From Streptomyces sp. A2-16 (GTDB lineage Bacteria; Actinomycetota; Actinomycetes; Streptomycetales; Streptomycetaceae): a DNA stretch of 64,000 bases. A model generated the notes under the pieces. That model saw nothing but the letters and a program-made list of their open reading frames with translations. It ran no database searches and had not been told where the DNA came from. Positions within the stretch are counted from its first letter, which is position 1; every line of letters starts with the position of its first letter. The stretch covers positions 8,866,001 to 8,930,000 of the forward strand of contig NZ_CP063808.1 in assembly GCF_018128905.1 (NCBI RefSeq). Reading direction: 5' to 3'. Shown here piece by piece: positions 24,930-36,430 of this stretch. The translations under genes were made by a program, and so were the position numbers.

Positions 24930-26240
24930 TCAGAGCCTCCTGCGCCTGGGCATGAACGTGAAGATCGCGCCGCCCAGCAGCAGTGCCGTCCCTGCCACCA
25001 GACCCAGCGCCTTCAGCGCCGCGTGGTCGTCCGCGCCGGTCGCGGCCAGGCCGCCGCTGGTCGACGTACCGGACGACGATCCGCCGGAGCCCGACGAACC
25101 GCCCGACGCCCCGCCCTCCTGCTCCTCCGTGGTCAGGGTCAGGGAGACGGTCGTGCTGTCCGGCTTGCAGGTCGTGGTCGTGCCCAGGGCCTCGATCGTC
25201 AGGACACCCGGCGACAGCGTCGACTCACCCGTCGCACCCGGCTTGTACGTGCCCGTCATGTCCGGGATCTCTATCGGATCGCCCGACTTGATGGCCGCGG
25301 AGTTGGTGGGTCCCTCGACATGGACCGAGCCCTTGTCGTCGCCGCCCAGGGTCACCTCCATGGAGGGCTTGACCGAGTCGGCGGGGATGTCGGCGGGGCT
25401 GTCCATCGGGGAGTTCTTGAACTGCACGGTGAGGCCGTAACTGCCGCCGTCCTTCTTGGCGTTGATCTGGATCGTGGAGGTGGCCTTCTTCTCGCCGAGG
25501 GGCGACTGGCAGGTGTAGGGGATGTCGACCGCCTTGCCCGTGAAGTCGGTCTGGCCGTCGTCCGAGGACTTGGTCGGGCTCGGCGTCGGACTAGCCGTGT
25601 CGGTCGGCGTCGGGGTGGCGCTGTCCGTGGGATCCGAGGTCGGTGTGGGTGTCGGGGTCGACGAACCGTCTCCCTGCGCCACTTCGACCGTCCCCGCCGC
25701 CGGCACCGTCTGCGTCGGCGTGCACACCGTGTTCGTGCCCATCGCGTTCACCGTGTACGCGCCCGGCGTCAGCGTCACCTGCCCGGCCGCCGTCAGCTTC
25801 AGCGTGCCCTTCATGTCGGACAGCACCATGGCGCCGCCCTTGGGGATGGCCGGGTTCTCGCGCGGACCGGACATCGCGAGGTCGGCGGTCTGGGCGCCGC
25901 TCACCTTCAGCGTGCCGGTCGGCTGGACCGAATTGGCGGGCAGATCGATGATGTCGGGGTTTTTCGAGGCGGCCTGGGTGAACTTCCACACCACGTCGAT
26001 CTCGTCCCCGACCTTCGCGTCCGCAGGCGCGGTGATCTCGACCTTGGTGGTGCCGTCGACGGGGTCGAGCCCGACGCCCGCGGGCGGTACGCACCGGGTC
26101 GCGAACGACACCTCGGCGGCCTGGGCGGGTCCGGCGGCGAGGCCCAGCACCAGGCCCGTGCCGACCAGTACCAGCGCCGCACCCGCCGCGCTCGCTCGTC
26201 TCGGCCCGCCGGCTGGTGGGACTCTCCTTCGCATGCTCAC
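24930..26240 (-). CDS. secreted surface protein with two repeated domains and an LAATG sorting signal
   Basis: 436 residues. GTG 26240 is chosen because it overlaps the upstream stop in a GTGA and has AGAGAGGG 7 nt before it. Signal peptide to about residue 40 (AGPAQAAE). Two copies of an about 130-residue domain follow, each starting with a cysteine (SFATRC, IPYTCQSP) and ending with GTTTTC or GTNTVC; a Thr/Pro/Ser linker separates them. The end has LAATG, a hydrophobic stretch and RRRRL, which fits class E sortase anchoring. Function unknown. Confidence 0.85.
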   Translation of the reverse strand: MSMRRRVPPAGGPRRASAAGAALVLVGTGLVLGLAAGPAQAAEVSFATRCVPPAGVGLDPVDGTTKVEITAPADAKVGDEIDVVWKFTQAASKNPDIIDLPANSVQPTGTLKVSGAQTADLAMSGPRENPAIPKGGAMVLSDMKGTLKLTAAGQVTLTPGAYTVNAMGTNTVCTPTQTVPAAGTVEVAQGDGSSTPTPTPTSDPTDSATPTPTDTASPTPSPTKSSDDGQTDFTGKAVDIPYTCQSPLGEKKATSTIQINAKKDGGSYGLTVQFKNSPMDSPADIPADSVKPSMEVTLGGDDKGSVHVEGPTNSAAIKSGDPIEIPDMTGTYKPGATGESTLSPGVLTIEALGTTTTCKPDSTTVSLTLTTEEQEGGASGGSSGSGGSSSGTSTSGGLAATGADDHAALKALGLVAGTALLLGGAIFTFMPRRRRL

Positions 26241-27328
26241 GTGGAACCCTCTCTGGTGGGAGTCGTGGGACTCGTCGGGCTGTCGTCGTGCGGTGCGGAG
26301 AGCCGGCCACCGACCGCGCCCGGATCTGCGTCCGGGGTGAACCACGGCAGGGTGGACGTCGGGGTGGCCGCGTGCGCGGCCGTGGAGGGCTTGAACCCCG
26401 GCAGGCGCAGGGCGAGTTCGGGCAGCCGCAGTCCGCGGTGCCGGATGCCTCCGGCCGGCCGTGGCCGTACCCGGTCCACCACCGCCATGCCGATGCGGAA
26501 CAGCGCCGCGGGCACCACCAGGCAGACCAGGATCCAGAACAGGGTCACGCCCCAGGGCCGGCCCACGCCCCAGGGCTGCTCGGCCAGCACCTTGCCGCCG
26601 TACTTCAGCGACACGGTGTACTCGCCGTGCGCGCCGCCGGTCAGCTCGACGGGCAGTTCGATGCGCGCCTTCCCGCCCGGCCGGATCGTGCCGCGCCACT
26701 GCTGTTCCTCCCACTGCGGGGCGAACACGCCGTGCGCGGTGCCGACTTGGAAGACCGGGTTCCTGATGTCGGAGGTGCCGACGTTGCCGACGGTGAAGAC
26801 GAGGGTGCGGGCGGGGGGCGCCCCGAACCAGGTCAGCAGGGAGCCGGAGCCGTCGAGCCGGGTGTCGGTGAGGACGGACAGCCGCCCGCCGCCCGTGTCC
26901 GCGGGCAGCGGTTCCACGGCGTGCCCGGCCACCTGGAAGATCGCGTCGGCCTCGGCCTTCGCCCCGGTCACGGTGGCCACGTGCACCACACAGGGGCAGG
27001 GCACCGGCGGCTCGGCGACGGGCAGCTTCCTGCTGAAGTGCCCCTTCGCGTCCGTGGTGACGGCCCGACCGTCCGCGTTGGCGCAGGAGTTGGTGCCGCC
27101 GGGCACCCCGCGCGAGGGCACCGCCTGGCCGCAGACCAGGATCATCAGCAGCGCCCGCGCCCGCCATCCGCTGCCGCTCACGGTGATCGAACCGCCGGTC
27201 CCCGCCTGGGCCTTGGACAGCTCCACCGTCGGCCTGTCGGCCGCGGTCGCCGTCCCCGCCAGGGGTGCGAACAGCAGCGCGAGCACCGCCACCAGCACCG
27301 CCCACCGCGCCTTGCCGCTCGGGCTCAC
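26237..27328 (-). CDS. exported membrane protein of unknown function, coupled to surface proteins
   Basis: 363 residues from GTG 27328. Signal peptide (WAVLVAVLALLFAPLAGTATAA), then two beta-rich extracellular regions: one from VELSKAQAGTGGSITVSGSGW with four cysteines (MILVCGQ, NSCAN, PCPC), one resembling an Ig-like repeat (TLVFTVGNVGTSDI). A transmembrane helix (TLFWILVCLVVPAALFRIGM) and a Pro-rich cytoplasmic tail end it. Its stop overlaps the next start (GTGA). Possibly a partner that holds or presents the two sorted proteins; not recognised as a named family. Confidence 0.75.
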   Translation of the reverse strand: MSPSGKARWAVLVAVLALLFAPLAGTATAADRPTVELSKAQAGTGGSITVSGSGWRARALLMILVCGQAVPSRGVPGGTNSCANADGRAVTTDAKGHFSRKLPVAEPPVPCPCVVHVATVTGAKAEADAIFQVAGHAVEPLPADTGGGRLSVLTDTRLDGSGSLLTWFGAPPARTLVFTVGNVGTSDIRNPVFQVGTAHGVFAPQWEEQQWRGTIRPGGKARIELPVELTGGAHGEYTVSLKYGGKVLAEQPWGVGRPWGVTLFWILVCLVVPAALFRIGMAVVDRVRPRPAGGIRHRGLRLPELALRLPGFKPSTAAHAATPTSTLPWFTPDADPGAVGGRLSAPHDDSPTSPTTPTREGST

Positions 27329-27555
27329 GTCGTCGCTCCCGTCAACTCGGCCTCCGTACACGGGGATTCGGGCGCGCGTCCGGCCGTACGAGGCCCTCGA
27401 CGCCGTACGCCGGACGAACCGCCCCCGGCCGGCACGCCGTCGGGCGCACCGGGCGACCCGTCGACGGCACGGTCCGGCGGGTCCGGCGCGGGTGGGACAC
27501 GGGTGGGGGACGGCATGGGCGGCTCCAGCTGTCGTACGAGAGCGGACCGGGCCGC

Positions 27556-28248
27556 TCAGCGGCGCGCGCGGGCCGTCTGGTTGCGCCGGGTCAGCCACAG
27601 CGCGCCCGCCGCACCCGCGAGCAGCACCGTGCCGCCGAGCGTGCCGAGGGCGATCGCCGAGTCCGCAGGGCCGGTCTGCGGGAGGGCGGCGCCCTCGTCG
27701 CTGCCGCTGTCGCTCCGGGTGCCGCCGGAGGAGCCCGAGGCGGCGGTGACGTCGAGGGTCAGTGCGGCGCCGGGGCTGTTGGTCGGCGTGCAGGTGGTCG
27801 TCGTACCGAGCGCCTTGATGGTGAGGACGCCCGGCGTGAAGGTGACCTTGCCGGACTTCTTCGGGGTGTAGGTCCCGGTCAGGTCGTTGATCTTGATGGG
27901 GGTGTTGGCGGGGACGACGGCCTGGTTGGCGGGGCCCGTCACGTTCATCGTCCCGCTGTCCGCGCCGCCCAGCTTGATGGTGGCGCTCGGGTTCATCGCG
28001 CCCTTGCCGAGATCGACCGGGCTGGACGACACGCCCTTCTGCCACGACATGGTGATCTTGTAGCCGGCGCCGCTCTTGACGCCCTCGATGTCGATGGGCG
28101 AGACGGCGCTCTTGTCCCCGATCGGCGTCTTGCACTGGTAGTTGACGTTCACGACCTCGGCACGGGCAGCGGGGGCGGCCATCAGCACCGCCGAGCCGGC
28201 CAGAGCCGCGACGGACGCGAGCGCGGCGGTTCGTTTCGGGTACGACAC
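27556..28248 (-). CDS. secreted surface protein with LPQTG sorting signal
   Basis: 230 residues from GTG 28248, with ggggag 7 nt upstream. Signal peptide ends near AAPAARA-E (residue 30). One domain (about 31-165) is related to the repeated domain of the 24930-26240 protein: VNYQCKTPIG, LGGADSG, VTGPAN, INDLTGTYTP, LTIKALGTTTTC. Then a Ser/Gly linker, LPQTG, a hydrophobic helix and RRNQTARARR, a classical sortase signal. It heads the set on this strand. Role unknown, probably a cell-wall or adhesion component. Confidence 0.85.
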   Translation of the reverse strand: MSYPKRTAALASVAALAGSAVLMAAPAARAEVVNVNYQCKTPIGDKSAVSPIDIEGVKSGAGYKITMSWQKGVSSSPVDLGKGAMNPSATIKLGGADSGTMNVTGPANQAVVPANTPIKINDLTGTYTPKKSGKVTFTPGVLTIKALGTTTTCTPTNSPGAALTLDVTAASGSSGGTRSDSGSDEGAALPQTGPADSAIALGTLGGTVLLAGAAGALWLTRRNQTARARR

Positions 28249-28380
28249 GGTTCCGCTCCCCTTACTCGTTCCTGACGGCACATCAGATCGGCCGTCAAGG
28301 TACGCCGGGGCACCGGAGGAAGGAAGAGAAAGTAAGTGTCGGAACTGTGGGGACGGCTCCGGGTGAACACCGCGGGGATG

Positions 28381-28875
28381 CTAGGCGGGTGCTCCGAGCT
28401 CCGCCCACACGGTCTTGCCGATCAGCCCGGGAGCCCGTACGACTCCCCAGTCCAGGCAGAGCCGCTGCACGATGAACATGCCGTGCCCGCCGGGCCGTCC
28501 CGCCCGGTGCGGAGTGCGCGGCGCGGGCTGTCCGGTCCCCCGGTCCGAGACCTCGAGCCGGATCACCTTGTTGTCGCAGGAGATCTGCAGCTGGTCCGGG
28601 CCCTCCGCGTGCAGGCAGGCGTTCGTCACCAGCTCGGAGACGACCAGCAGCACGTCCTCCGCCGCGGCCCGCCGGTCGGCGGACGCCGCCGGCAGCCATC
28701 CCCACGCGTGCAGTGCCTGCCGGGTGAAGTCGCGTGCGAGCGGGACGACCCCGCTCTCCCCCTCGAAGCTCAGCCGACGGACCTGCCGTCCCGTCGGCAC
28801 CTCGGCTTCGCCGCCAGGCTCCACGCTGGGCTCCGGGTCACGGTCGCCCGGCGAGTAGGGCCGGGTGGTGCTCAT
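28381..28875 (-). CDS. anti-sigma factor-type ATP-binding protein (RsbW/HATPase_c_2)
   Basis: 164 residues. GHKL ATPase of the serine-kinase anti-sigma group: N-box EDVLLVVSELVTNACLHA, G1 box EVSDRGTGQP and G2 GGHGMFIVQRLCLDWG. Such proteins bind a SigB-type sigma factor and phosphorylate a STAS antagonist. The first 35 residues are an acidic, Pro-rich extension. A STAS protein and a SigB-family sigma factor lie next to it, so partner switching is the natural reading. Confidence 0.88.
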   Translation of the reverse strand: MSTTRPYSPGDRDPEPSVEPGGEAEVPTGRQVRRLSFEGESGVVPLARDFTRQALHAWGWLPAASADRRAAAEDVLLVVSELVTNACLHAEGPDQLQISCDNKVIRLEVSDRGTGQPAPRTPHRAGRPGGHGMFIVQRLCLDWGVVRAPGLIGKTVWAELGAPA

Positions 28876-29101
28876 CAGCGCTTCACCTCACCGATTCACC
28901 GGTTCACGATTCAAAACGTCACTGCATGGTCGCTCACCGAACAGTCAGTACGGATGTCTCCTGCCCGGGCGGACCGGTGGAACACCCCCGCATTCGGGAC
29001 GTTTGTCCGCCACGAGAGGTGTGACACCCGCTGGACACCGGCCGCACAAGACGAACGGGGCCACCAACGGGACCGCCGCGGCCGCCGCCCGGGTCACCGC
29101 C

Positions 29102-29482
29102 TCAGCCGCCGGTCTCGCCGGCCAGGGCCTCCTCCAGCGTGTCGTGCACGGTGAAGACCGCGTCGGCCCCCGTGATCTCGAAGACCCGCGCCACGACCGG
29201 CAGCATGCCCGCCAGATGCACGCCACCCCCCGCCGCCTCGGCCTTCAGCCGCGCCCCCAGCAGCACATTCAGTCCGGTGGAGTCACAGAACTCCAGCCGT
29301 GTGCAGTCGACGACAAGCCGGCTCTTCCCTTTGGCGAGGCATTCCTCGAGTGGCTCACGCAACAAATCGGCCGTGTGGTGATCCAACTCACCTGCTGGAG
29401 TCACGACGGCACTGGAGCCCTCTTGCCGCACCTCAACCAGAAGCCGGCCAGACTGTGCGCTGCCGACCGTCCCGCGGTCCAT
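29102..29482 (-). CDS. STAS-domain anti-sigma factor antagonist
   Basis: 126 residues, single STAS domain. The phosphorylatable serine is Ser68 in EFCDSTGLNVLLGAR, and the opening VTPAGELDHHTADLL is typical. When unphosphorylated it would bind the ATP-binding anti-sigma factor encoded downstream and free the sigma factor. It is divergent from the sigma gene with about 250 nt between. Confidence 0.9.
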   Translation of the reverse strand: MDRGTVGSAQSGRLLVEVRQEGSSAVVTPAGELDHHTADLLREPLEECLAKGKSRLVVDCTRLEFCDSTGLNVLLGARLKAEAAGGGVHLAGMLPVVARVFEITGADAVFTVHDTLEEALAGETGG

Positions 29483-29732
29483 GCCGTCTCTCTCTCCCGA
29501 CGTCGTGGCTGCTGATGACGCCCTCGAACACTACGCCTTCTCCACACCCTCCGACACCCGAACAATCACCCACAAACGGACATAACCACACAGAACACAC
29601 TTGCGGTCGTGTCGGGGAACCGGGTAGGGCTAGTAGAGACACGTACTCGACACGGCCGGCTTTGGAGGCGCCGCACACCGCAGTGCACGAACTGGCTTCG
29701 GCAGCCATATGCCGAGAACGATGGAGGACATC

Positions 29733-30635
29733 ATGTCACCCCGGCTCGACGCCTCGCATACCCATCAGGCGACGTCGACATCCCCCCCGGAACATCTGGA
29801 TCCCATCGAGCAGGACAGCGAAGGCGATGTGCTCGCCGGGCTTCCGGAGATCCCACCGTTCGAAGAGGTGGGGGCGGTGGACGCACGAGCGCTCTCCAAG
29901 ACCCTCTTCGCGCGCCTGGAGTCGCTGGAGGAGGGCACGCACGAGTACTCGTACGTCCGCAACACGCTCGTCGAACTGAACCTCGCCCTGGTCAAGTTCG
30001 CCGCCTCCCGGTTCCGCTCCCGCAGTGAGCCGATGGAGGACATCATCCAGGTCGGCACCATCGGCCTGATCAAGGCGATCGACCGCTTCGAACTCAGCCG
30101 TGGTGTGGAGTTCCCCACCTTCGCGATGCCAACCATCGTGGGCGAGATCAAGCGCTTCTTCCGCGACACGTCCTGGTCGGTGCGGGTGCCGCGCCGTCTT
30201 CAGGAGCTCCGGCTCGACCTGGCCAAGGCCGGCGACGAACTGGCCCAGAAGCTCGACCGCGCCCCCACCGTGGCCGAGCTCGCCGAGCGCCTCGGGCTGT
30301 CGAAGGAGGAGGTCGTCGAGGGAATGGCGGCGTCCAACGCGTACACCGCCTCCTCGCTGGACGCCCAGCCCGAGGAGGACGACTCCGAGGGCGCGCTGGC
30401 CGACCGCATCGGCTACGAGGACCACGGGCTCGAGGGCATCGAGTACGTCGAGTCCCTGAAGCCGCTGATCGCCGAGCTCCCCTCCCGGGACCGCCAGATC
30501 CTCTCGCTGCGCTTCGTCGCGGGCATGACCCAGTCGGAGATCGGCGACGAGCTCGGCATCTCCCAGATGCATGTCTCGCGGCTGCTGTCGCGGACTCTGG
30601 TACGACTGCGCAAGGGCCTGACCGTCGAGGAGTGA
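29733..30635 (+). CDS. SigB/SigF-family RNA polymerase sigma factor
   Basis: 300 residues from ATG 29733, chosen for GGAGG at 29723-29727; an in-frame start at 29709 lacks one. Regions 2, 3 and 4 are complete: MEDIIQVGTIGLIKAIDRFE and GVEFPTFAMPTIVGEIKRFF (region 2), VRVPRRLQEL and the region 3 helices, then ELPSRDRQILSLRFVAGMTQSEIG and SQMHVSRLLSR (region 4). With the anti-sigma and STAS genes it resembles the S. coelicolor sigI locus, by memory of gene order only. Likely a stress sigma factor. Confidence 0.95.
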   Translation: MSPRLDASHTHQATSTSPPEHLDPIEQDSEGDVLAGLPEIPPFEEVGAVDARALSKTLFARLESLEEGTHEYSYVRNTLVELNLALVKFAASRFRSRSEPMEDIIQVGTIGLIKAIDRFELSRGVEFPTFAMPTIVGEIKRFFRDTSWSVRVPRRLQELRLDLAKAGDELAQKLDRAPTVAELAERLGLSKEEVVEGMAASNAYTASSLDAQPEEDDSEGALADRIGYEDHGLEGIEYVESLKPLIAELPSRDRQILSLRFVAGMTQSEIGDELGISQMHVSRLLSRTLVRLRKGLTVEE

Positions 30636-30697: not shown

Positions 30698-30801
30698 GGG
30701 CGGGCCCCTCGTGTTACTCGGAGAAACCCTTTCCCCAACGGTTCGCTTCCCCCACTATGGTCCCTCACAGACTGGCCGGTACGTCAGGAGGAGGGTGCGC
30801 A

Positions 30802-32406
30802 ATGGCGCGTGCCGACGGGGCCGGGGACGGTGTGCGCGCCGGAAATCACCACGACGCGTCCGACGCCCGGCTCACCCAGCTGCTGCGCGCCGACACGGGC
30901 ACCGCGTACGCGGCCCTCCTCGAGCTCCGCGCCCGCCACCAGCCCTCGGTCCTCGCCTACGCCCGGCTGTGCACCGCCGGGGAGAGCGGCGCCCGGCAGC
31001 TGGCCGCGCAGACCTTCACCCTCGCGGCCCGGGAGACGGCCCGCGGGGTCGACCCCGGCGTCCCCTGGCGCCACCGGCTCCTGCTGCTGACGGCCCGGTC
31101 GGCGGCGGCCTGGGCCGGGGACGCGCGGGCGGCGGGCCTGGACCCGAACGTCCTCCTGCTCCTGAACACCGCGGGGCCCGGCGGCCCGGTGCCGCCCATG
31201 CTCACCGCCTTCGAGTCCCTGCCGGCCCGCACCCAGGGCCTCGTCTGGTACGGCCTGGTGGAGGCCGAGCCCGAGTCCCGCACCGCCGGCCACCTGGGCG
31301 TCACCCGCGAGGACGTGGTCTACGGCACGGAGGGGGCCCTGCAGGCCCTGGCCCGGGAATGTCTGCGACTGCGCCTCGCCGCCTCGGACGATCCCCAGTG
31401 CGCGGACTTCCGCCGCCTCATCGAGGAGTCCGTACGACCGGACAGCCCCCGCGCCAGCACCGACCTGCACACCCACATGAGCCACTGCCCGCACTGCGCG
31501 GCGGCCCACGCGGAGCTGTGCGCGCTGCGGGACACCCCGCGGGCGGCCCTGGCGGAGGGGCTGCTGCCGTGGGGCGGGACGGCGTACGCGGGGTCGCGGC
31601 AGGGCACGGGCGAGCCGGGGCCGGAGAAGGGCGCGGACGGACCGGGGGTGGGCCGGGGCGCGGGTGTGCCGGGGGCGGGGCGGCGTGCGATGTCGCGGGC
31701 GCCGTCGGGCACCTGGCCGCGGCCGCGTCGGCTCGTGCTGGCGTCGGCGGCGCTGGGGGTGGCACTGGCGCCGCTGCTGGTGTTCCTGGTGGCGCAGGGC
31801 GGCGAATCGTCCTCCGGGGCGGCGTCACCTCCGGCGTCCGCTCCGGGCGGCGGCGCGCTGCCGGGTCCGCCCCAGGTGACGGTGACGGCGACGCTCACGC
31901 CCTCCCCCTCGCCGTCCCGGTCCGCCACCAGCAGGCCGCCGTCGCCCTCGCCGTCGAGGAGCACGGCACCGCCGCGGAAGGCGAGCCCGCCCCCGTTCCG
32001 CGCGCCGGGCGGCGCCTACGCCCAGGTGGTCAACGTCTCCACGGCGCGCTGCCTGGACGTCTCCGGCGACTTCGACAACGGCGCGGACGTCGTCACGGCC
32101 CCCTGCTCCTCGGCCGGCTCCCAGCGCTGGCGTGTCGACACCGCGCGCGGAGTCCTCCAGTCCGCGGCCGACCCCGACTTCTGTCTCGACAGCCGCGGTG
32201 ACGTCGACAAGGGCCTCGGCATCTGGTCCTGCGACTCGGTCGAGGGCGACAACGGCGACAACCTGCGCTTCACGGTCGACCCCGACGGGGTGATCCGCCC
32301 GGCGATCGCCATCGCGACGGGCCTGACGCCGGGAGGCGGGGGCGGGGTCTCACTGGAGCCGCTGACCGGGGGTGCGGAGCAGCGGTGGCGGGCGGGGGCG
32401 AGGTAA
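30802..32406 (+). CDS. membrane protein: sigma-like region, ZAS motif, helix and extracellular ricin lectin
   Basis: 534 residues from ATG 30802 with AGGAGGAG upstream. Residues about 20-200 resemble a degenerate ECF-type sigma factor (LRARHQPSVLAYARL like region 2; FESLPARTQGLVWYGL like region 4). A zinc anti-sigma motif H-x3-C-x2-C follows (H225, C229, C232). Then a Gly/Pro linker, one transmembrane helix (about 311-331), a Ser/Pro/Thr linker and a ricin-type beta-trefoil (about 407-534) with CLDVSGDFDNGADVV and QRWR repeats. Topology places the lectin outside and the sigma/ZAS part inside, suggesting a sugar-sensing regulator; function unproven. Confidence 0.82.
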   Translation: MARADGAGDGVRAGNHHDASDARLTQLLRADTGTAYAALLELRARHQPSVLAYARLCTAGESGARQLAAQTFTLAARETARGVDPGVPWRHRLLLLTARSAAAWAGDARAAGLDPNVLLLLNTAGPGGPVPPMLTAFESLPARTQGLVWYGLVEAEPESRTAGHLGVTREDVVYGTEGALQALARECLRLRLAASDDPQCADFRRLIEESVRPDSPRASTDLHTHMSHCPHCAAAHAELCALRDTPRAALAEGLLPWGGTAYAGSRQGTGEPGPEKGADGPGVGRGAGVPGAGRRAMSRAPSGTWPRPRRLVLASAALGVALAPLLVFLVAQGGESSSGAASPPASAPGGGALPGPPQVTVTATLTPSPSPSRSATSRPPSPSPSRSTAPPRKASPPPFRAPGGAYAQVVNVSTARCLDVSGDFDNGADVVTAPCSSAGSQRWRVDTARGVLQSAADPDFCLDSRGDVDKGLGIWSCDSVEGDNGDNLRFTVDPDGVIRPAIAIATGLTPGGGGGVSLEPLTGGAEQRWRAGAR

Positions 32407-32427: not shown

Positions 32428-32799
32428 TTACGGCTTGCCGATGTCCACGACCCACACTCCCGTACCGTCATAGGCGTCCGGCGTCGCGGTCAGGATCTGC
32501 CCTTCGACAGTGCCGGAGGCGGCGGCGTAAACCGCGTGGCCGAACGGCCAGTCCAGACCGGCGGACACGACCTGTTCGACGGCAGCGGCCCCCGCAAAGT
32601 CGAGCGTCAGGAACTCCAAACCCGGCAGGGCTCCGACATGGGCTGCCACACCGGGCCGCTCCAGGCTGGCTGCGACGAGGCACAGGGCAGGAACATGCGC
32701 TCGCTGGGCCGGATCGTCGACCTCCACGACTGCCAGCCCTGACAGCAGCCGGTGCCCACGACAGAGGGCAAGGACCGCGGTGTGATCCAGAATGATCAC
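32428..32799 (-). CDS. PIN-like toxin candidate (VapC-like)
   Basis: 123 residues. The GTG start (32799) overlaps the antitoxin stop by four bases. PIN-like landmarks: an N-terminal aspartate (IILDHTAVLALCRG) and a late block GHAVYAAASGTVEGQILTATPDAY in the place of the usual DALIAAxA...LLTxD. The central acidic positions are poorly kept, so nuclease activity is uncertain. VapC toxins cut RNA; here the assignment rests mainly on size and pairing. Confidence 0.65.
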   Translation of the reverse strand: MIILDHTAVLALCRGHRLLSGLAVVEVDDPAQRAHVPALCLVAASLERPGVAAHVGALPGLEFLTLDFAGAAAVEQVVSAGLDWPFGHAVYAAASGTVEGQILTATPDAYDGTGVWVVDIGKP

Positions 32800-33059
32800 C
32801 TACGACTCCCCACTTGGCCGGAGGCGATCGCCGCCCGCCAATCCTGTGCCTCCCGCACGTCGTCCTCGGTGAAGTCCTCGCGCAGGTGGGCGCGCACATA
32901 GGCCACCGCCCGAGCCGTCCGCTCGGCACGCTCGACCTCAGTGGGCGTGGCGGCGACAACCCGCTCGACGTATGCCCGCGTACTCAAGCCCCGCTCTTCT
33001 GCCAGCATGCGAAGGCGGTCCCTTATTGATTCGCTGATCTTGATCGTGGTGTCAGCCAT
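32796..33059 (-). CDS. ribbon-helix-helix antitoxin candidate (VapB-like)
   Basis: 87 residues from ATG 33059 (MADTTIKISES). The N-terminal TIKISESIRDRLRMLAEERGLS fits a ribbon-helix-helix DNA-binding fold, followed by an acidic helical tail that would wrap the toxin. Stop overlaps the toxin start (GTGA). An earlier ATG gives five more residues; no clear ribosome site decides. Probably represses its own operon, as is normal for the family. Confidence 0.72.
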   Translation of the reverse strand: MADTTIKISESIRDRLRMLAEERGLSTRAYVERVVAATPTEVERAERTARAVAYVRAHLREDFTEDDVREAQDWRAAIASGQVGSRR

Positions 33060-33091
33060 AGACGGAGAATACATCTGAATACCTGAGTGGG

Positions 33092-33604
33092 TCAGCCCTT
33101 ACGGCGAGTCCTGTACGCGTCGAGGTCCTTGAACGCCACTTCGATGGCGCGCTTTAGGTGGTTGCCCGCATGCATGCGCCGCTCCATCCGGGCCTCACGC
33201 TCTTCGACGGAATATTCGGTCGGCGCCGGCCCGGCCACCGCAAGGTACTTGGCAAGCCTCGACTCCAGTTCTCGCGCGCACAACTGCAGTGGCTGGGGCA
33301 GCCGGTCAGGAGCCAACTCAGCCTTCACCTGCAGATCACGCAAGGGCTTGAGGTCAACCTCCGACACCACTTGCCCAAGTACCCGATGCCCCTCCAGATT
33401 GATTTCGTCGACCAGTGCCTTGAAGTCACGCACTGCCTCAGCCGCCCGATCCTGGTAGCGATCGCCCCGCCCGATCCGGTGGATAAGCAGGGACAACGCC
33501 AGAGGGAGCAGGAGGGTTGCCGCCCAGGGTAGCCACCCTCCTGGCGGTGCCCCAGCGGCGAGATCGCCCCCGCTGATGGCCGATGAGGCGACCTGTAGGC
33601 CCAC
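33092..33604 (-). CDS. hypothetical membrane-anchored protein
   Basis: 170 residues from GTG 33604. Not recognised. A single hydrophobic helix near the N-terminus (GWLPWAATLLLPLALSLLIH, about 23-42) is followed by a charged, mostly helical cytoplasmic or extracellular domain rich in Glu, Arg and Leu (YSVEEREARMERRMHAGNHL). It lies just upstream of the toxin-antitoxin pair on the same strand within a lower-GC islet, so it may be a cargo gene. Confidence 0.6.
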   Translation of the reverse strand: MGLQVASSAISGGDLAAGAPPGGWLPWAATLLLPLALSLLIHRIGRGDRYQDRAAEAVRDFKALVDEINLEGHRVLGQVVSEVDLKPLRDLQVKAELAPDRLPQPLQLCARELESRLAKYLAVAGPAPTEYSVEEREARMERRMHAGNHLKRAIEVAFKDLDAYRTRRKG

Positions 33605-33839: not shown

Positions 33840-35093
33840 CTACGCGTCTTGGCCGAACCGGATCCATCGGTACCTCTCCGACTCCGGATCCTCCAGGGCC
33901 GTTGCCGTGCGCGAACCCGAATCCTTGACGCCCCCCGCCAGAGAGAAGGTTCCGTTACTGGTGCGCTTGCCGCAGATGCCGTCCCAGTACTTGGGGTCCC
34001 TGGCCCACTGGACACCCTTGAGTAGCTCCATGAGCTCGTTCAGACTCCGATGTGGAGCGGCGGCCCAGGGCATGGACCGGTGGGCGACGGCGCCCAGCGC
34101 GGCGAACACCGCTGGGGCCGCGATGACATGCCGGGTCCGGTCCGCGAAACAAAAGGCGAACTCGTCGAAGAGCAGGCCGAGGACCTCTGCGATGGACTCC
34201 TCGGCCTGCTCCCGGTCACAGTGCTGAGGCAGGTCATGGATCGATCCGCTCGTCCGCTCGAAGCCGGCTTTGCCGAAGATCGCAGTCACCACGAACGAAC
34301 GCAGCGTGGACAAGGTCATCCATGCGTGGTCAGCGGCCTTCAGTTGTCGCTGCCGCACGGCGATCAGTTCCTCCAACAAGACCGCCTCGCCCGACTCGGG
34401 GTCCACGACGGACATCGTCGCCAGGAGTGCGTTCGCGATCTGGGTCGCCTTGTTCAGTGAGTCCGAGGCCAGGGCCACGTTCTTGTTGGGGACGACACCG
34501 AGCAGGTTGCGATCGTGGAAGATCTGCCTGGCTGCGCTCAGTTCGATGCCGTGGTAGATCTCCACTCCGACCGTCCGCCCGTTGACCTGCTGTGCCGTCA
34601 CGCCGTAGGCGGCGGGGTCGTCCAGAAGCAAAAAGTGCGCCAGGTGCTGGGTCTCCGCATCGACCAGCACCCCGGTCACCGAGTACGGCAGATAGACCAG
34701 GTGATCGACGCCGAAGGGGCTCCTTGCCTTGACGGTGGTCAACTGATCGTCGGTCCACAGCGCAAAAGGCGGAGTCGCCCAGTGCTCGCCACGCTCACCC
34801 CGTATGACGTTCGCCAGGTAACGGGCATAGTCCTTGGCGTTCTCCGCCTTCTTCGTGGACTTGATGACGCGCTGCACCTGAGTACGCACATCGGCCTGTC
34901 GCTGCACCTCAGGGGAGAGAGCCTGGAGCACGCGCACGTTCTCCGAGAGCCGTGGATCGGGCACGATCTGCCGCAGCTTGCCCCAGGGCATGCTTGCCAG
35001 AAGCCGAGTAGGGCTCATTTGTAGGACTCGCAGTGGTTCGCCGAGCCCCGGGTCGATTTCGTCCACGTACTCTGCAGCCAGATGTTCGGCCAC
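33840..35093 (-). CDS. DndB-like (DGQHR-type) protein
   Basis: 417 residues from GTG 35093, preceded by ggagagggg; the frame is open to 35171 without a ribosome site. The mid-region resembles DNA sulfur-modification DndB/DGQHR proteins: VDAETQHLAHFLLLDD in the position of the DGQHR signature, and RQIFHDRNLLGVVPNKNVALASD like the DndB 'FxDxN' segment. The DGQHR residues themselves are altered. DndB regulates phosphorothioation genes, but no dndA/C/D/E genes are visible here. Sits in the accessory islet next to hutI. Assignment is by pattern only. Confidence 0.58.
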   Translation of the reverse strand: MAEHLAAEYVDEIDPGLGEPLRVLQMSPTRLLASMPWGKLRQIVPDPRLSENVRVLQALSPEVQRQADVRTQVQRVIKSTKKAENAKDYARYLANVIRGERGEHWATPPFALWTDDQLTTVKARSPFGVDHLVYLPYSVTGVLVDAETQHLAHFLLLDDPAAYGVTAQQVNGRTVGVEIYHGIELSAARQIFHDRNLLGVVPNKNVALASDSLNKATQIANALLATMSVVDPESGEAVLLEELIAVRQRQLKAADHAWMTLSTLRSFVVTAIFGKAGFERTSGSIHDLPQHCDREQAEESIAEVLGLLFDEFAFCFADRTRHVIAAPAVFAALGAVAHRSMPWAAAPHRSLNELMELLKGVQWARDPKYWDGICGKRTSNGTFSLAGGVKDSGSRTATALEDPESERYRWIRFGQDA

Positions 35094-35212
35094 AGGCCGC
35101 CCCTCTCCACTCAACCGACGTCGAGGCCACGAGATGTCCGGCCCGGACCCGAATGACCCAAGCGTAGTCAACGTCAGTCAACTGCGGGGGGACTATGGGG
35201 CAACTGCGGGGA

Positions 35213-36430
35213 TCACCCTGCTACACGCACGCCCTTCCGCCACACCCCGCTGACCAGCGGCACCCCCGGCCGGTACGCCAGGTGCACATGGCTCGGGGCG
35301 TCCAGGAGGATCAGGTCGGCCCGGGCGCCCGGGGTGAGGCGGCCGATGTCCTCGCGGCGCAGGGCGGCCGCTCCGCCCGCCGTGGCCGACCAGACCGCCT
35401 CGTCGGGGGTCATCCCCATGTCGCGCACCGCGAGGGCGACGCAGAAGGGGACGGAGGAGGTGAAGGAGGAGCCCGGGTTGCAGTCCGTGGACAGGGCGAC
35501 GGTGACGCCGGCGTCCAGGAGGCGGCGGGCGTCCGGCCACTCGGCGCGCGTGGAGAACTCCGCGCCGGGCAGGAGCGTGGCGACCGTACGGCTGTTCGCC
35601 AGGGCGTCCACGTCCTCGGCGGTGAGGTGGGTGCAGTGGTCGGCGCTGGCCGCGTCGAGTTCCACCGCCAGCTGCACACCGGGGCCGTAGGAGAGCTGGT
35701 TGGCGTGGATGCGGGGGTGCAGGCCCTTCGCCCGGCCCGCCGTGAGGATCGCGCGGGCCTGGTCGCCGTCGAAGGCGCCCTTCTCGCAGAAGACGTCGAT
35801 CCAGCGGGCGTACGGGGCGCAGGCGTCGAGCATCTCGCCGGTGACCAGCGCCACATAGGCGGCCGGGTCGTCGGCGTGGTCTGGCGACACGATGTGGGCG
35901 CCGAGGTAGGTGACCTCGTCGGTGTGGGCGGCGGCGATGCGCAGGGCGCGGGCCTCGTCCTCGACGGTCAGGCCGTAGCCGGACTTGGTCTCGAAGGTGG
36001 TCGTGCCCTGGCGGAGGGCCTCAGCGAGGTAGCGGGTGAGGTTGCGTTCGAGTTCGGCGTCCGTGGCGGCCCGGGTCGCGGCGACCGTCGTGCGGATGCC
36101 GCCCGCGCTGTAAGCCCGACCGGACATGCGGGCGTTGAACTCCTGGGTGCGGTCGCCCGCGAAGACGAGGTGGCTGTGGGAGTCGACGAAGCCGGGGAGG
36201 ACCGCCCGGCCACCTGCGTCGACCCGATTGTCAGTGGCGGGTGCTTTGCTTTGATCACCGGTCCACACGACGCGGTCGCCCTCGATGGCGATCGCCGCGT
36301 CCTGGACCAGTCCGAGGGGGGATCCGTCACCTAGGGAGGGGTCGTTGGTGACCAGGGCGGCGATGTTGGTGATGAGCGTGCTTGCGGTGCTCGCGGAGTG
36401 GGCGGGGCTGACGTTCGTCGCGTTGCTCAT
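35213..36430 (-). CDS. hutI: imidazolonepropionase HutI
   Basis: 405 residues from ATG 36430 (MSNATNVSP). Opens the ring of 4-imidazolone-5-propionate to give formiminoglutamate. Amidohydrolase landmarks: [21 protein letters not shown] with the HxH metal site, [29 protein letters not shown] and [14 protein letters not shown]. Last gene of the hut operon, 74 nt after hutF. The frame stays open far upstream but only as antisense or overlap of hutF. Confidence 0.95.

What the first reader, a model, noticed from the sequence alone, without database searches (positions are those of the whole stretch)
30802..32406. One protein joins a sigma-like region, a zinc anti-sigma motif, a membrane helix and an external ricin lectin
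The order read in sequence is an ECF-sigma-like part, H-x3-C-x2-C, linker, one helix, linker, beta-trefoil. This puts sugar binding outside and transcription-factor-like parts inside on a single chain, and it follows a SigB-family sigma gene and its partner-switch set. A direct sugar-to-transcription sensor is a possible reading.
Basis: partly seen in the sequence, partly recalled or inferred. Interest (0 to 1): 0.62.

Follow-up and report, generated by a model that had tools for sequence, protein, structure and literature searches.

The report
Membrane sugar-sensor with a worn-down sigma domain
A Streptomyces membrane protein joins a worn-down gene-switch (sigma) domain, its zinc-binding inhibitor and an outside sugar-binding domain; the build is of a known type, but here the sigma half has lost residues that its intact relatives keep.

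Summary
The 534-residue protein at 30802-32406 has a divergent two-region sigma-like part (about 20-192), a zinc anti-sigma motif (C200/H225/C229/C232), one membrane helix (about 312-330), a Pro/Ser linker and a ricin-type lectin (406-529). The architecture and the sugar-to-transcription idea are already in print for ECF52 (SCO4117). What differs is the sigma half. It is clearly sigma-derived (43 of 43 orthologs score 61-85 bits against a profile of intact fusions; shuffles reach 8), but Pfam does not see it, and the region 2.2 acidic residue (polymerase contact, by recall) is gone in 43 of 43. It falls on one side of a 99/99 split with relatives that keep the zinc motif but mostly lack that residue, with ricin, CBM2 or LamG modules outside. 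It is still under selection (omega 0.45). The gene lies beside sigI in 37 of 38 other Streptomyces genomes with a close ortholog. But prsI, arsI and sigI stand complete in 40 of 40 loci fetched that lack it, and a strong hairpin separates the two genes. So SigI does not need it, and a direct sigma role for it is unproven and somewhat disfavoured.

The parts
30802..32406 (+). P0001: sigma-like / zinc anti-sigma / membrane helix / ricin lectin fusion, 534 aa
30859..31131 (+). sigma region 2-like part (residues 20-110), region 2.2 acidic residues replaced (Q66, Q70)
31210..31377 (+). sigma region 4-like part (residues 137-192), RAR motif of intact relatives replaced
31384..31551 (+). zinc-binding anti-sigma-like domain (residues 195-250; C200, H225, C229, C232)
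   Evidence: some intact relatives hit zf-HC2 here
31735..31791 (+). single membrane helix (residues 312-330)
   Evidence: hydropathy peak 2.56
31795..32007 (+). Pro/Ser/Thr-rich outer linker (residues 332-402), poorly conserved
32008..32400 (+). ricin-type beta-trefoil lectin domain (residues 403-533; Pfam match 406-529)
   Evidence: Pfam PF00652
30655..30698 (+). 20-pair hairpin between sigI and P0001, likely terminator (no T run)
   Evidence: -46.6 kcal/mol, z -7.14
29709..30635 (+). sigI ortholog, SigB-family sigma factor
   Evidence: TIGR02980 E 8.1e-93; locus layout
29102..29482 (-). arsI-like anti-anti-sigma factor (STAS)
28381..28875 (-). prsI-like anti-sigma factor (RsbW-type ATPase domain)
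35213..36400 (-). gene conserved on the other side of P0001 (hutI-like; name recalled, limits approximate)
   Evidence: synteny

Best explanation
P0001 is a one-protein membrane sensor derived from fused ECF sigma/anti-sigma factors. Outside, the ricin-type lectin on a flexible Pro/Ser stalk binds a glycan (specificity unknown). Inside, a zinc anti-sigma domain holds a sigma-shaped domain. The likely signal path, as proposed in print for ECF52, is that glycan binding changes or cleaves the protein so that the inner module is set free or re-exposed. Because the sigma half of P0001 has lost the region 2.2 acidic residues and the region 4.2 RAR motif that intact relatives keep, I think it more likely acts through protein contacts (holding or releasing a zinc anti-sigma surface, or titrating another regulator) than as a stand-alone promoter-recognising sigma factor. 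Shown: domain order, sigma ancestry, loss of those residues, selection on the folded parts, a conserved but not obligate place beside sigI. Inferred: glycan ligand, signalling direction, release step, output.
For: Sigma ancestry: profile-profile 99.6% over residues 17-252 with plasmid fusions that carry Pfam Sigma70_r2 and r4_2; the A1 profile hits ECF SigE in the PDB at 8.8e-5; profiles with shuffle controls. Erosion: D at position 66 in 0 of 43 close orthologs, 0 of 8 intermediates, 4 of 14 other chromosomal relatives (three of these four lie on the intact side of the tree), 9 of 9 plasmid-borne Pfam-positive or stand-alone rows, 0 of 3 plasmid Pfam-negative rows. R at position 180: 0 of 43 close orthologs, 9 of 9 plasmid intact rows. 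Pfam sigma hit in 0 of 21 eroded-side proteins scanned and in 11 of 11 fused intact-side proteins scanned. Split 99/99. Zinc CHCC kept in 77 of 77 rows. Selection: omega sigma-like 0.45 (0.35-0.59), lectin 0.29 (0.19-0.44), cytoplasmic linker 0.70 (0.43-1.09); 42 orthologs keep 68% mean identity in the sigma part and 67% in the lectin.
Against: No binding or transcription data. Residue loss does not prove loss of sigma activity: the 4.2 segment's mean net charge is only a little lower (+1.1 against +2.0), 9 of 43 orthologs still have E at position 70 and 4 of 43 R at 178. The 4.2 loss is not clade-wide: R180 is kept in 4 of 8 intermediates and 13 of 14 other chromosomal relatives, most of them on the eroded side. 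In other eroded-side groups (L092 and L093 types) the sigma part is more conserved than the last 150 residues, as in intact fusions. Zinc retention is partly selection bias, since the search profile covered the zinc domain. AlphaFold models are poor (pLDDT 45.8 for residues 1-254; 39.4 for the lectin). The tree carries a long-branch warning. The residue roles are recalled, not tested.
Confidence: 0.55

Rival explanations
1. It is a working, diverged ECF sigma factor held at the membrane by its own zinc anti-sigma domain and freed by proteolysis when the lectin binds sugar (the published ECF52 model).
For: Same domain order as SCO4117; both sigma regions traceable; sigma part as conserved as the lectin; charge of the 4.2 segment only a little lower than in intact relatives.
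Against: Region 2.2 acid and 4.2 RAR residues lost in P0001 and its close orthologs while intact relatives keep them; no Pfam sigma hit at E 10; the sigma half is under much weaker constraint than the neighbouring true sigma gene (omega 0.45 against 0.06-0.14 in 9 of 10 sigI pairs, 0.25 in the tenth).
Confidence: 0.27
2. It is a functional part of the SigI partner-switching system, for example a membrane input that feeds ArsI or PrsI.
For: Directly downstream of sigI in 37 of 38 other genomes with a close ortholog and in two more distant ones, L084 and L085; 4 of 4 loci; label clustered on the SigI/ArsI tree, so mostly inherited in place.
Against: 40 of 40 sigI loci fetched that lack the gene keep prsI, arsI and sigI; 8 changes of presence on the tree, at least 6 forced by starred branches; in G132 the ortholog lies elsewhere; hairpin between the genes in 3 of the 4 loci folded; a paper calls sigI monocistronic in S. 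coelicolor; hutI on the other side is about as constant (35 of 38), so general gene order can explain the adjacency; zinc anti-sigma domains are known for ECF, not SigB-type, partners (recalled).
Confidence: 0.1
3. A decaying relic: a fusion protein on its way to loss.
For: Repeated absence at the same junction; weaker constraint than sigI.
Against: No stop inside the matched part in any of the 39 close rows, open frames of 465-778 aa; omega well below 1 in the sigma-like part and the lectin; 60 of 173 sigma-part columns at least 95% conserved in 42 orthologs.
Confidence: 0.08

Closest known systems
ECF52 sigma factors (SCO4117 of S. coelicolor)
   Same: Order sigma - zinc finger - membrane helix - proline-rich stretch - carbohydrate-binding module (PMC5826349). 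Locus L101 (NPCBM, sigma, zf-HC2, TetR gene upstream) fits the published SCO4117/atrA description.
   Different: Ricin lectin in place of NPCBM; sigma part not recognised by Pfam; P0001 lies on the other side of the tree's 99/99 split.
ECF53 sigma factors
   Same: Also described as C-terminal anti-sigma fusions with membrane helices and, for some, sugar-acting domains (PMC8999054 and PMC10766802, passages).
   Different: No ECF53 reference sequence could be compared; membership not testable here.
Streptomyces plasmid sigma-zinc-ricin fusions (L001-L003, L008)
   Same: Ricin-type lectin, zinc motif and Pfam sigma regions, annotated sigma-70 family; helix peak in 3 of the 4 (not L001).
   Different: They are among 9 rows that all keep D66, E70, R178 and R180; of 43 P0001-type orthologs 0, 9, 4 and 0 do.
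SigI/PrsI/ArsI system
   Same: Neighbouring genes, same layout.
   Different: P0001 looks like a separate transcription unit by sequence and is missing from 40 of 40 further sigI loci that I fetched because no close ortholog was listed there.

Membership tests
ECF52/ECF53-type fused sigma factors | Functional ECF regions 2 and 4 | tested here: inconclusive
   Homology clear; Pfam sigma not met at E 10; key residues lost. Activity not testable.
ECF52/ECF53-type fused sigma factors | C-terminal zinc anti-sigma domain, membrane helix, Pro-rich stretch and carbohydrate-binding module on one chain | tested here: met
ECF52 | Groups with SCO4117-type sequences | tested here: not met
   The SCO4117-like L101 falls on the other side of a 99/99 split; L101's identity rests on its architecture and a TetR gene upstream, not on SCO4117 itself.
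ECF53 | Groups with ECF53 reference sequences | not testable with these tools
   No reference sequence fetched; the id tried for the classification paper is not held.
ZAS anti-sigma domains | C/H-x(n)-H-x3-C-x2-C zinc ligands | tested here: met
   43 of 43 close orthologs; Pfam zf-HC2 itself does not hit P0001.
Ricin_B_lectin | Pfam gathering score | tested here: met
   51.6 bits, cut-off 29.
Ricin_B_lectin | Binds a carbohydrate | not testable with these tools
   QRW motifs of two of three subdomains kept in 5 of 5, but the last one varies (QQW, RRW, QHW, LW) in some of the further orthologs; the motif's meaning is recalled.
SigI partner-switch system | Constant part of the locus | tested here: not met
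   40 of 40 fetched sigI loci without a close ortholog beside them keep prsI, arsI and sigI and hold no family member.

The most novel reading that the evidence does not exclude
Streptomyces carries a large clade of membrane glycan receptors built from fused ECF sigma factors whose sigma half has been turned from a transcription factor into a tethered signalling or decoy domain ('pseudo-sigma'), with the zinc anti-sigma clamp kept and the outer sugar-binding module swapped between ricin, CBM2 and LamG types. (Odds lowered from 0.40 on re-check, because most eroded-side relatives other than the sigI-locus group keep the second R of the region 4.2 RAR motif.)
Probability: 0.35. Interest if true: 0.62.

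Novelty: new variant of a known kind. Interest (0 to 1): 0.42.

Why it matters
Pseudoenzymes are well known, but a family of pseudo-sigma factors fused to their own inhibitors and to sugar-binding receptors would be a new use of the sigma fold, in bacteria that live on polysaccharides. The existence of relatives with intact sigma residues makes the question testable by direct comparison. If instead the worn-down domain still works as a sigma factor, it would show how little of the classical polymerase contact is needed.

Tried and rejected
Rejected: chance resemblance of the N-terminal part (shuffle controls); a weak match to zinc deaminases (8wlx, E 0.0077), which covers residues 207-282 around the H-x3-C-x2-C motif; phage or viral origin (no match at E 1e-5 in phages; no relative among viral contigs by exact peptide words); SigI operon membership.

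Led nowhere: AlphaFold models of residues 1-254 and of the lectin (pLDDT 45.8 and 39.4). The Foldseek search with the first gave ECF sigma chains at ranks 1-9 but no match at E 0.001 or better, so I count it as weak. The search for related loci on genome contigs found 4 orthologs, fewer than the 38 other genomes, as it needs exact peptide words. Paper searches (listings seen) showed no paper on this protein or on an eroded-sigma clade; this holds for the open-access library only, and SCO3069 as the S. coelicolor name is recalled. One entry (L075) used wrong coordinates and is not counted. The 40 sigI loci were chosen by hand from the list, not all of them; one (L114, G132) is from a genome whose ortholog lies elsewhere, and three (L128, L140, L141) from genomes with an intermediate relative elsewhere. 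L061 and L085 are cut by contig ends and were left out of the tree; L061 was left out (42 rows) but stays in the 43, and L085 in the 8. L052 and L069 were left out of the tree.

Full report
Observation. The frame at 30802-32406 encodes 534 residues with a GGAGGAGG just before the ATG. Pfam sees only the ricin lectin at 406-529; at E 10 the first 257 residues give no family at all. The motif C200-x24-H225-x3-C229-x2-C232 and one hydrophobic stretch at 312-330 are present.

Is the sigma part real? A tblastn search with residues 1-253 found 11 Streptomyces plasmid records at 31-37% identity; the ten with annotation call the gene a sigma-70 family sigma factor. Three of these proteins were scanned and carry Sigma70_r2, Sigma70_r4_2 and a ricin-type lectin. 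Profile comparison of the P0001 orthologs with them gives 99.6% over residues 17-252. A profile of the mixed alignment finds ECF SigE in the PDB at E 8.8e-5. With the zinc domain cut away, a profile of nine intact relatives scores P0001 at 69.1 bits, while the best of 2000 shuffles has 10.7; a profile of the five non-Streptomyces ones alone still gives E 1.7e-6. With twelve training sequences, all 43 close orthologs score 61-85 bits, 22 other eroded-side relatives 50-116, the best of 2359 reported shuffles (of 2600 made) 8.0, and intact relatives left out in turn 154-254. The part is sigma-derived, but strongly diverged.

What has been lost. In the alignment, position 66 (the acidic residue of region 2.2, by recall equivalent to D403 of E. 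coli sigma-70, a core-polymerase contact) is D in 0 of 43 close orthologs, 0 of 8 intermediate relatives, 4 of 14 other chromosomal relatives, 9 of 9 plasmid rows of the intact kind (one a stand-alone gene) and 0 of 3 plasmid rows without a Pfam sigma hit. Position 180 (second R of the RAR motif in region 4.2) is R in 0 of 43, 4 of 8, 13 of 14, 9 of 9 and 0 of 3. Thus the 2.2 loss is nearly general outside the intact group, while the 4.2 loss is a mark of P0001's own group and a few others; this counts against a clade-wide loss of DNA binding. Position 70 is still E in 9 of 43, position 178 R in 4 of 43. The segment matching region 2.4 has mean net charge +1.7 in the orthologs against +4.4 in the nine; the 4.2 segment +1.1 against +2.0, a small difference. 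The zinc ligands are kept in 77 of 77 rows, though the search profile covered that domain.

Where it belongs. A tree of 43 rows splits at 99/99 into a side with recognisable sigma domains (12 rows, among them L101, which matches the published ECF52 protein SCO4117 by its NPCBM module and a TetR gene upstream) and a side with eroded sigma domains (31 rows), whose scanned members carry ricin, CBM2 (L093, L099) or LamG (L012, L013, L102) modules. Pfam finds a sigma region in 11 of 11 fused proteins scanned on the first side and in 0 of 21 proteins scanned on the second (limits E 1 or 0.01). One row of the second side (L093) keeps D66. The tool warns of long branches, so the order inside the second side is not safe.

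Selection. From seven pairs of five orthologs omega is 0.45 (0.35-0.59) in the sigma-like part, 0.44 (0.22-0.85) in the zinc domain, 0.29 (0.19-0.44) in the lectin, 0.43 (0.30-0.64) in the outer linker and 0.70 (0.43-1.09) in the cytoplasmic linker. The neighbouring sigI has 0.06-0.14 in nine of ten pairs and 0.25 in the closest pair. Across 42 orthologs mean identity is 68% in the sigma part, 73% in the zinc domain, 67% in the lectin, 44-45% in the linkers. In the intact ricin fusions L001-L003 the sigma part is more conserved than the last 150 residues (74-84% against 68-72%); the same holds for the eroded-side groups of L092 and L093, while L086/L087 are level and L088/L089 reversed. So the relaxed pattern is seen in P0001's group, not in every eroded-side group. 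The sigma-like part of P0001 is kept, not decaying.

Surroundings. The genes at 28381-30635 match the layout described for S. coelicolor prsI, arsI and sigI, where sigI is called monocistronic (PMC8346170, passages seen). A 20-pair hairpin (-46.6 kcal/mol, z -7.14) lies between sigI and P0001, with comparable ones in L004 and L006 but not in L007. Of 150 Streptomyces genomes, 39 including the window's own have a close ortholog (343 bits or more). In 37 of the 38 others it lies directly downstream of sigI (in L069 only part of sigI matched), and also in two more distant ones, L084 and L085; the exception is G132 (L052), whose sigI locus lacks it. hutI is in the fetched stretch in 35 of the 38. 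A sigI ortholog at E 1.2e-135 or better is found in 135 of 150 genomes (my count). I fetched 40 sigI loci with no close ortholog listed beside them: 40 of 40 keep prsI, arsI and sigI, 35 of 40 have hutI in the stretch, and 0 of 40 hold any member of the family by its profile. On a tree of SigI plus ArsI (39 loci with, 40 without), presence needs 8 changes, at least 6 forced by starred branches, against 26-27 for shuffled labels: probably an old resident of this junction, lost several times. SigI evidently stands without it.

Literature. ECF52 proteins are described as sigma, zinc finger, membrane region, proline-rich stretch and carbohydrate-binding module, and release of the sigma domain through proteolysis or conformational change driven by the sugar module is proposed there, citing Pinto and Mascher 2016, which I did not read (PMC5826349: abstract, passages and Discussion seen; PMC8999054 and PMC10766802: passages seen). 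From a strain with a truncated SCO4117 the authors conclude that the sigma domain itself can modulate development. The searches listed nothing on an eroded-sigma clade.

Conclusion. Identity and anatomy are secure. The sensor model is inherited from the cousins. The new point is that this protein and many relatives keep the zinc clamp and the sugar module while sigma residues are worn down, most of all in P0001's own group, so the output may have changed. I give 0.55 to a glycan sensor whose sigma-like half no longer acts as a normal sigma factor and 0.27 to a still working sigma factor.

Noticed in passing
window 33840-35171 (-), with 33092-33604 (-): A DndB-like gene (Pfam DndB E 4.3e-7; PADLOC DndB E 0.0023) and a small unknown gene sit between P0001 and hutI in the window; no match to them in L004-L007.
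   Followed up: partly
window 32428-33074 (-): A two-gene pair that looks like a small toxin-antitoxin module by eye (weak ribbon-helix-helix hits only) directly after P0001; also in L006 (92-94% identical) but no match in L004, L005, L007.
   Followed up: partly
window 30768-30787: The leader of P0001 holds a stretch (CAGACTG-CCGGTACGTCAG, one variable place) unchanged in 5 of 5 orthologs including the distant L007; no explanation.
   Followed up: no
L093 (G000:C1:2651862-2652497) and L092 (G000:C1:3819685-3820323): The window's own genome holds at least two more members of the eroded-sigma side, one with a CBM2 cellulose-binding module, one with a ricin lectin and a Gly-rich tail.
   Followed up: partly
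L012, L013: LamG-type members lie just downstream of an MHYT-domain gene on two different plasmids.
   Followed up: no
L010:4862-5482: A stand-alone short sigma gene with the zinc motif but no helix or lectin lies next to a full fusion, possibly a truncated duplicate.
   Followed up: no
window 26240-27400 (-): A protein with a sub-threshold neocarzinostatin-like match (23.8 bits, cut-off 25), near a secreted-looking protein at 27556-28281.
   Followed up: no
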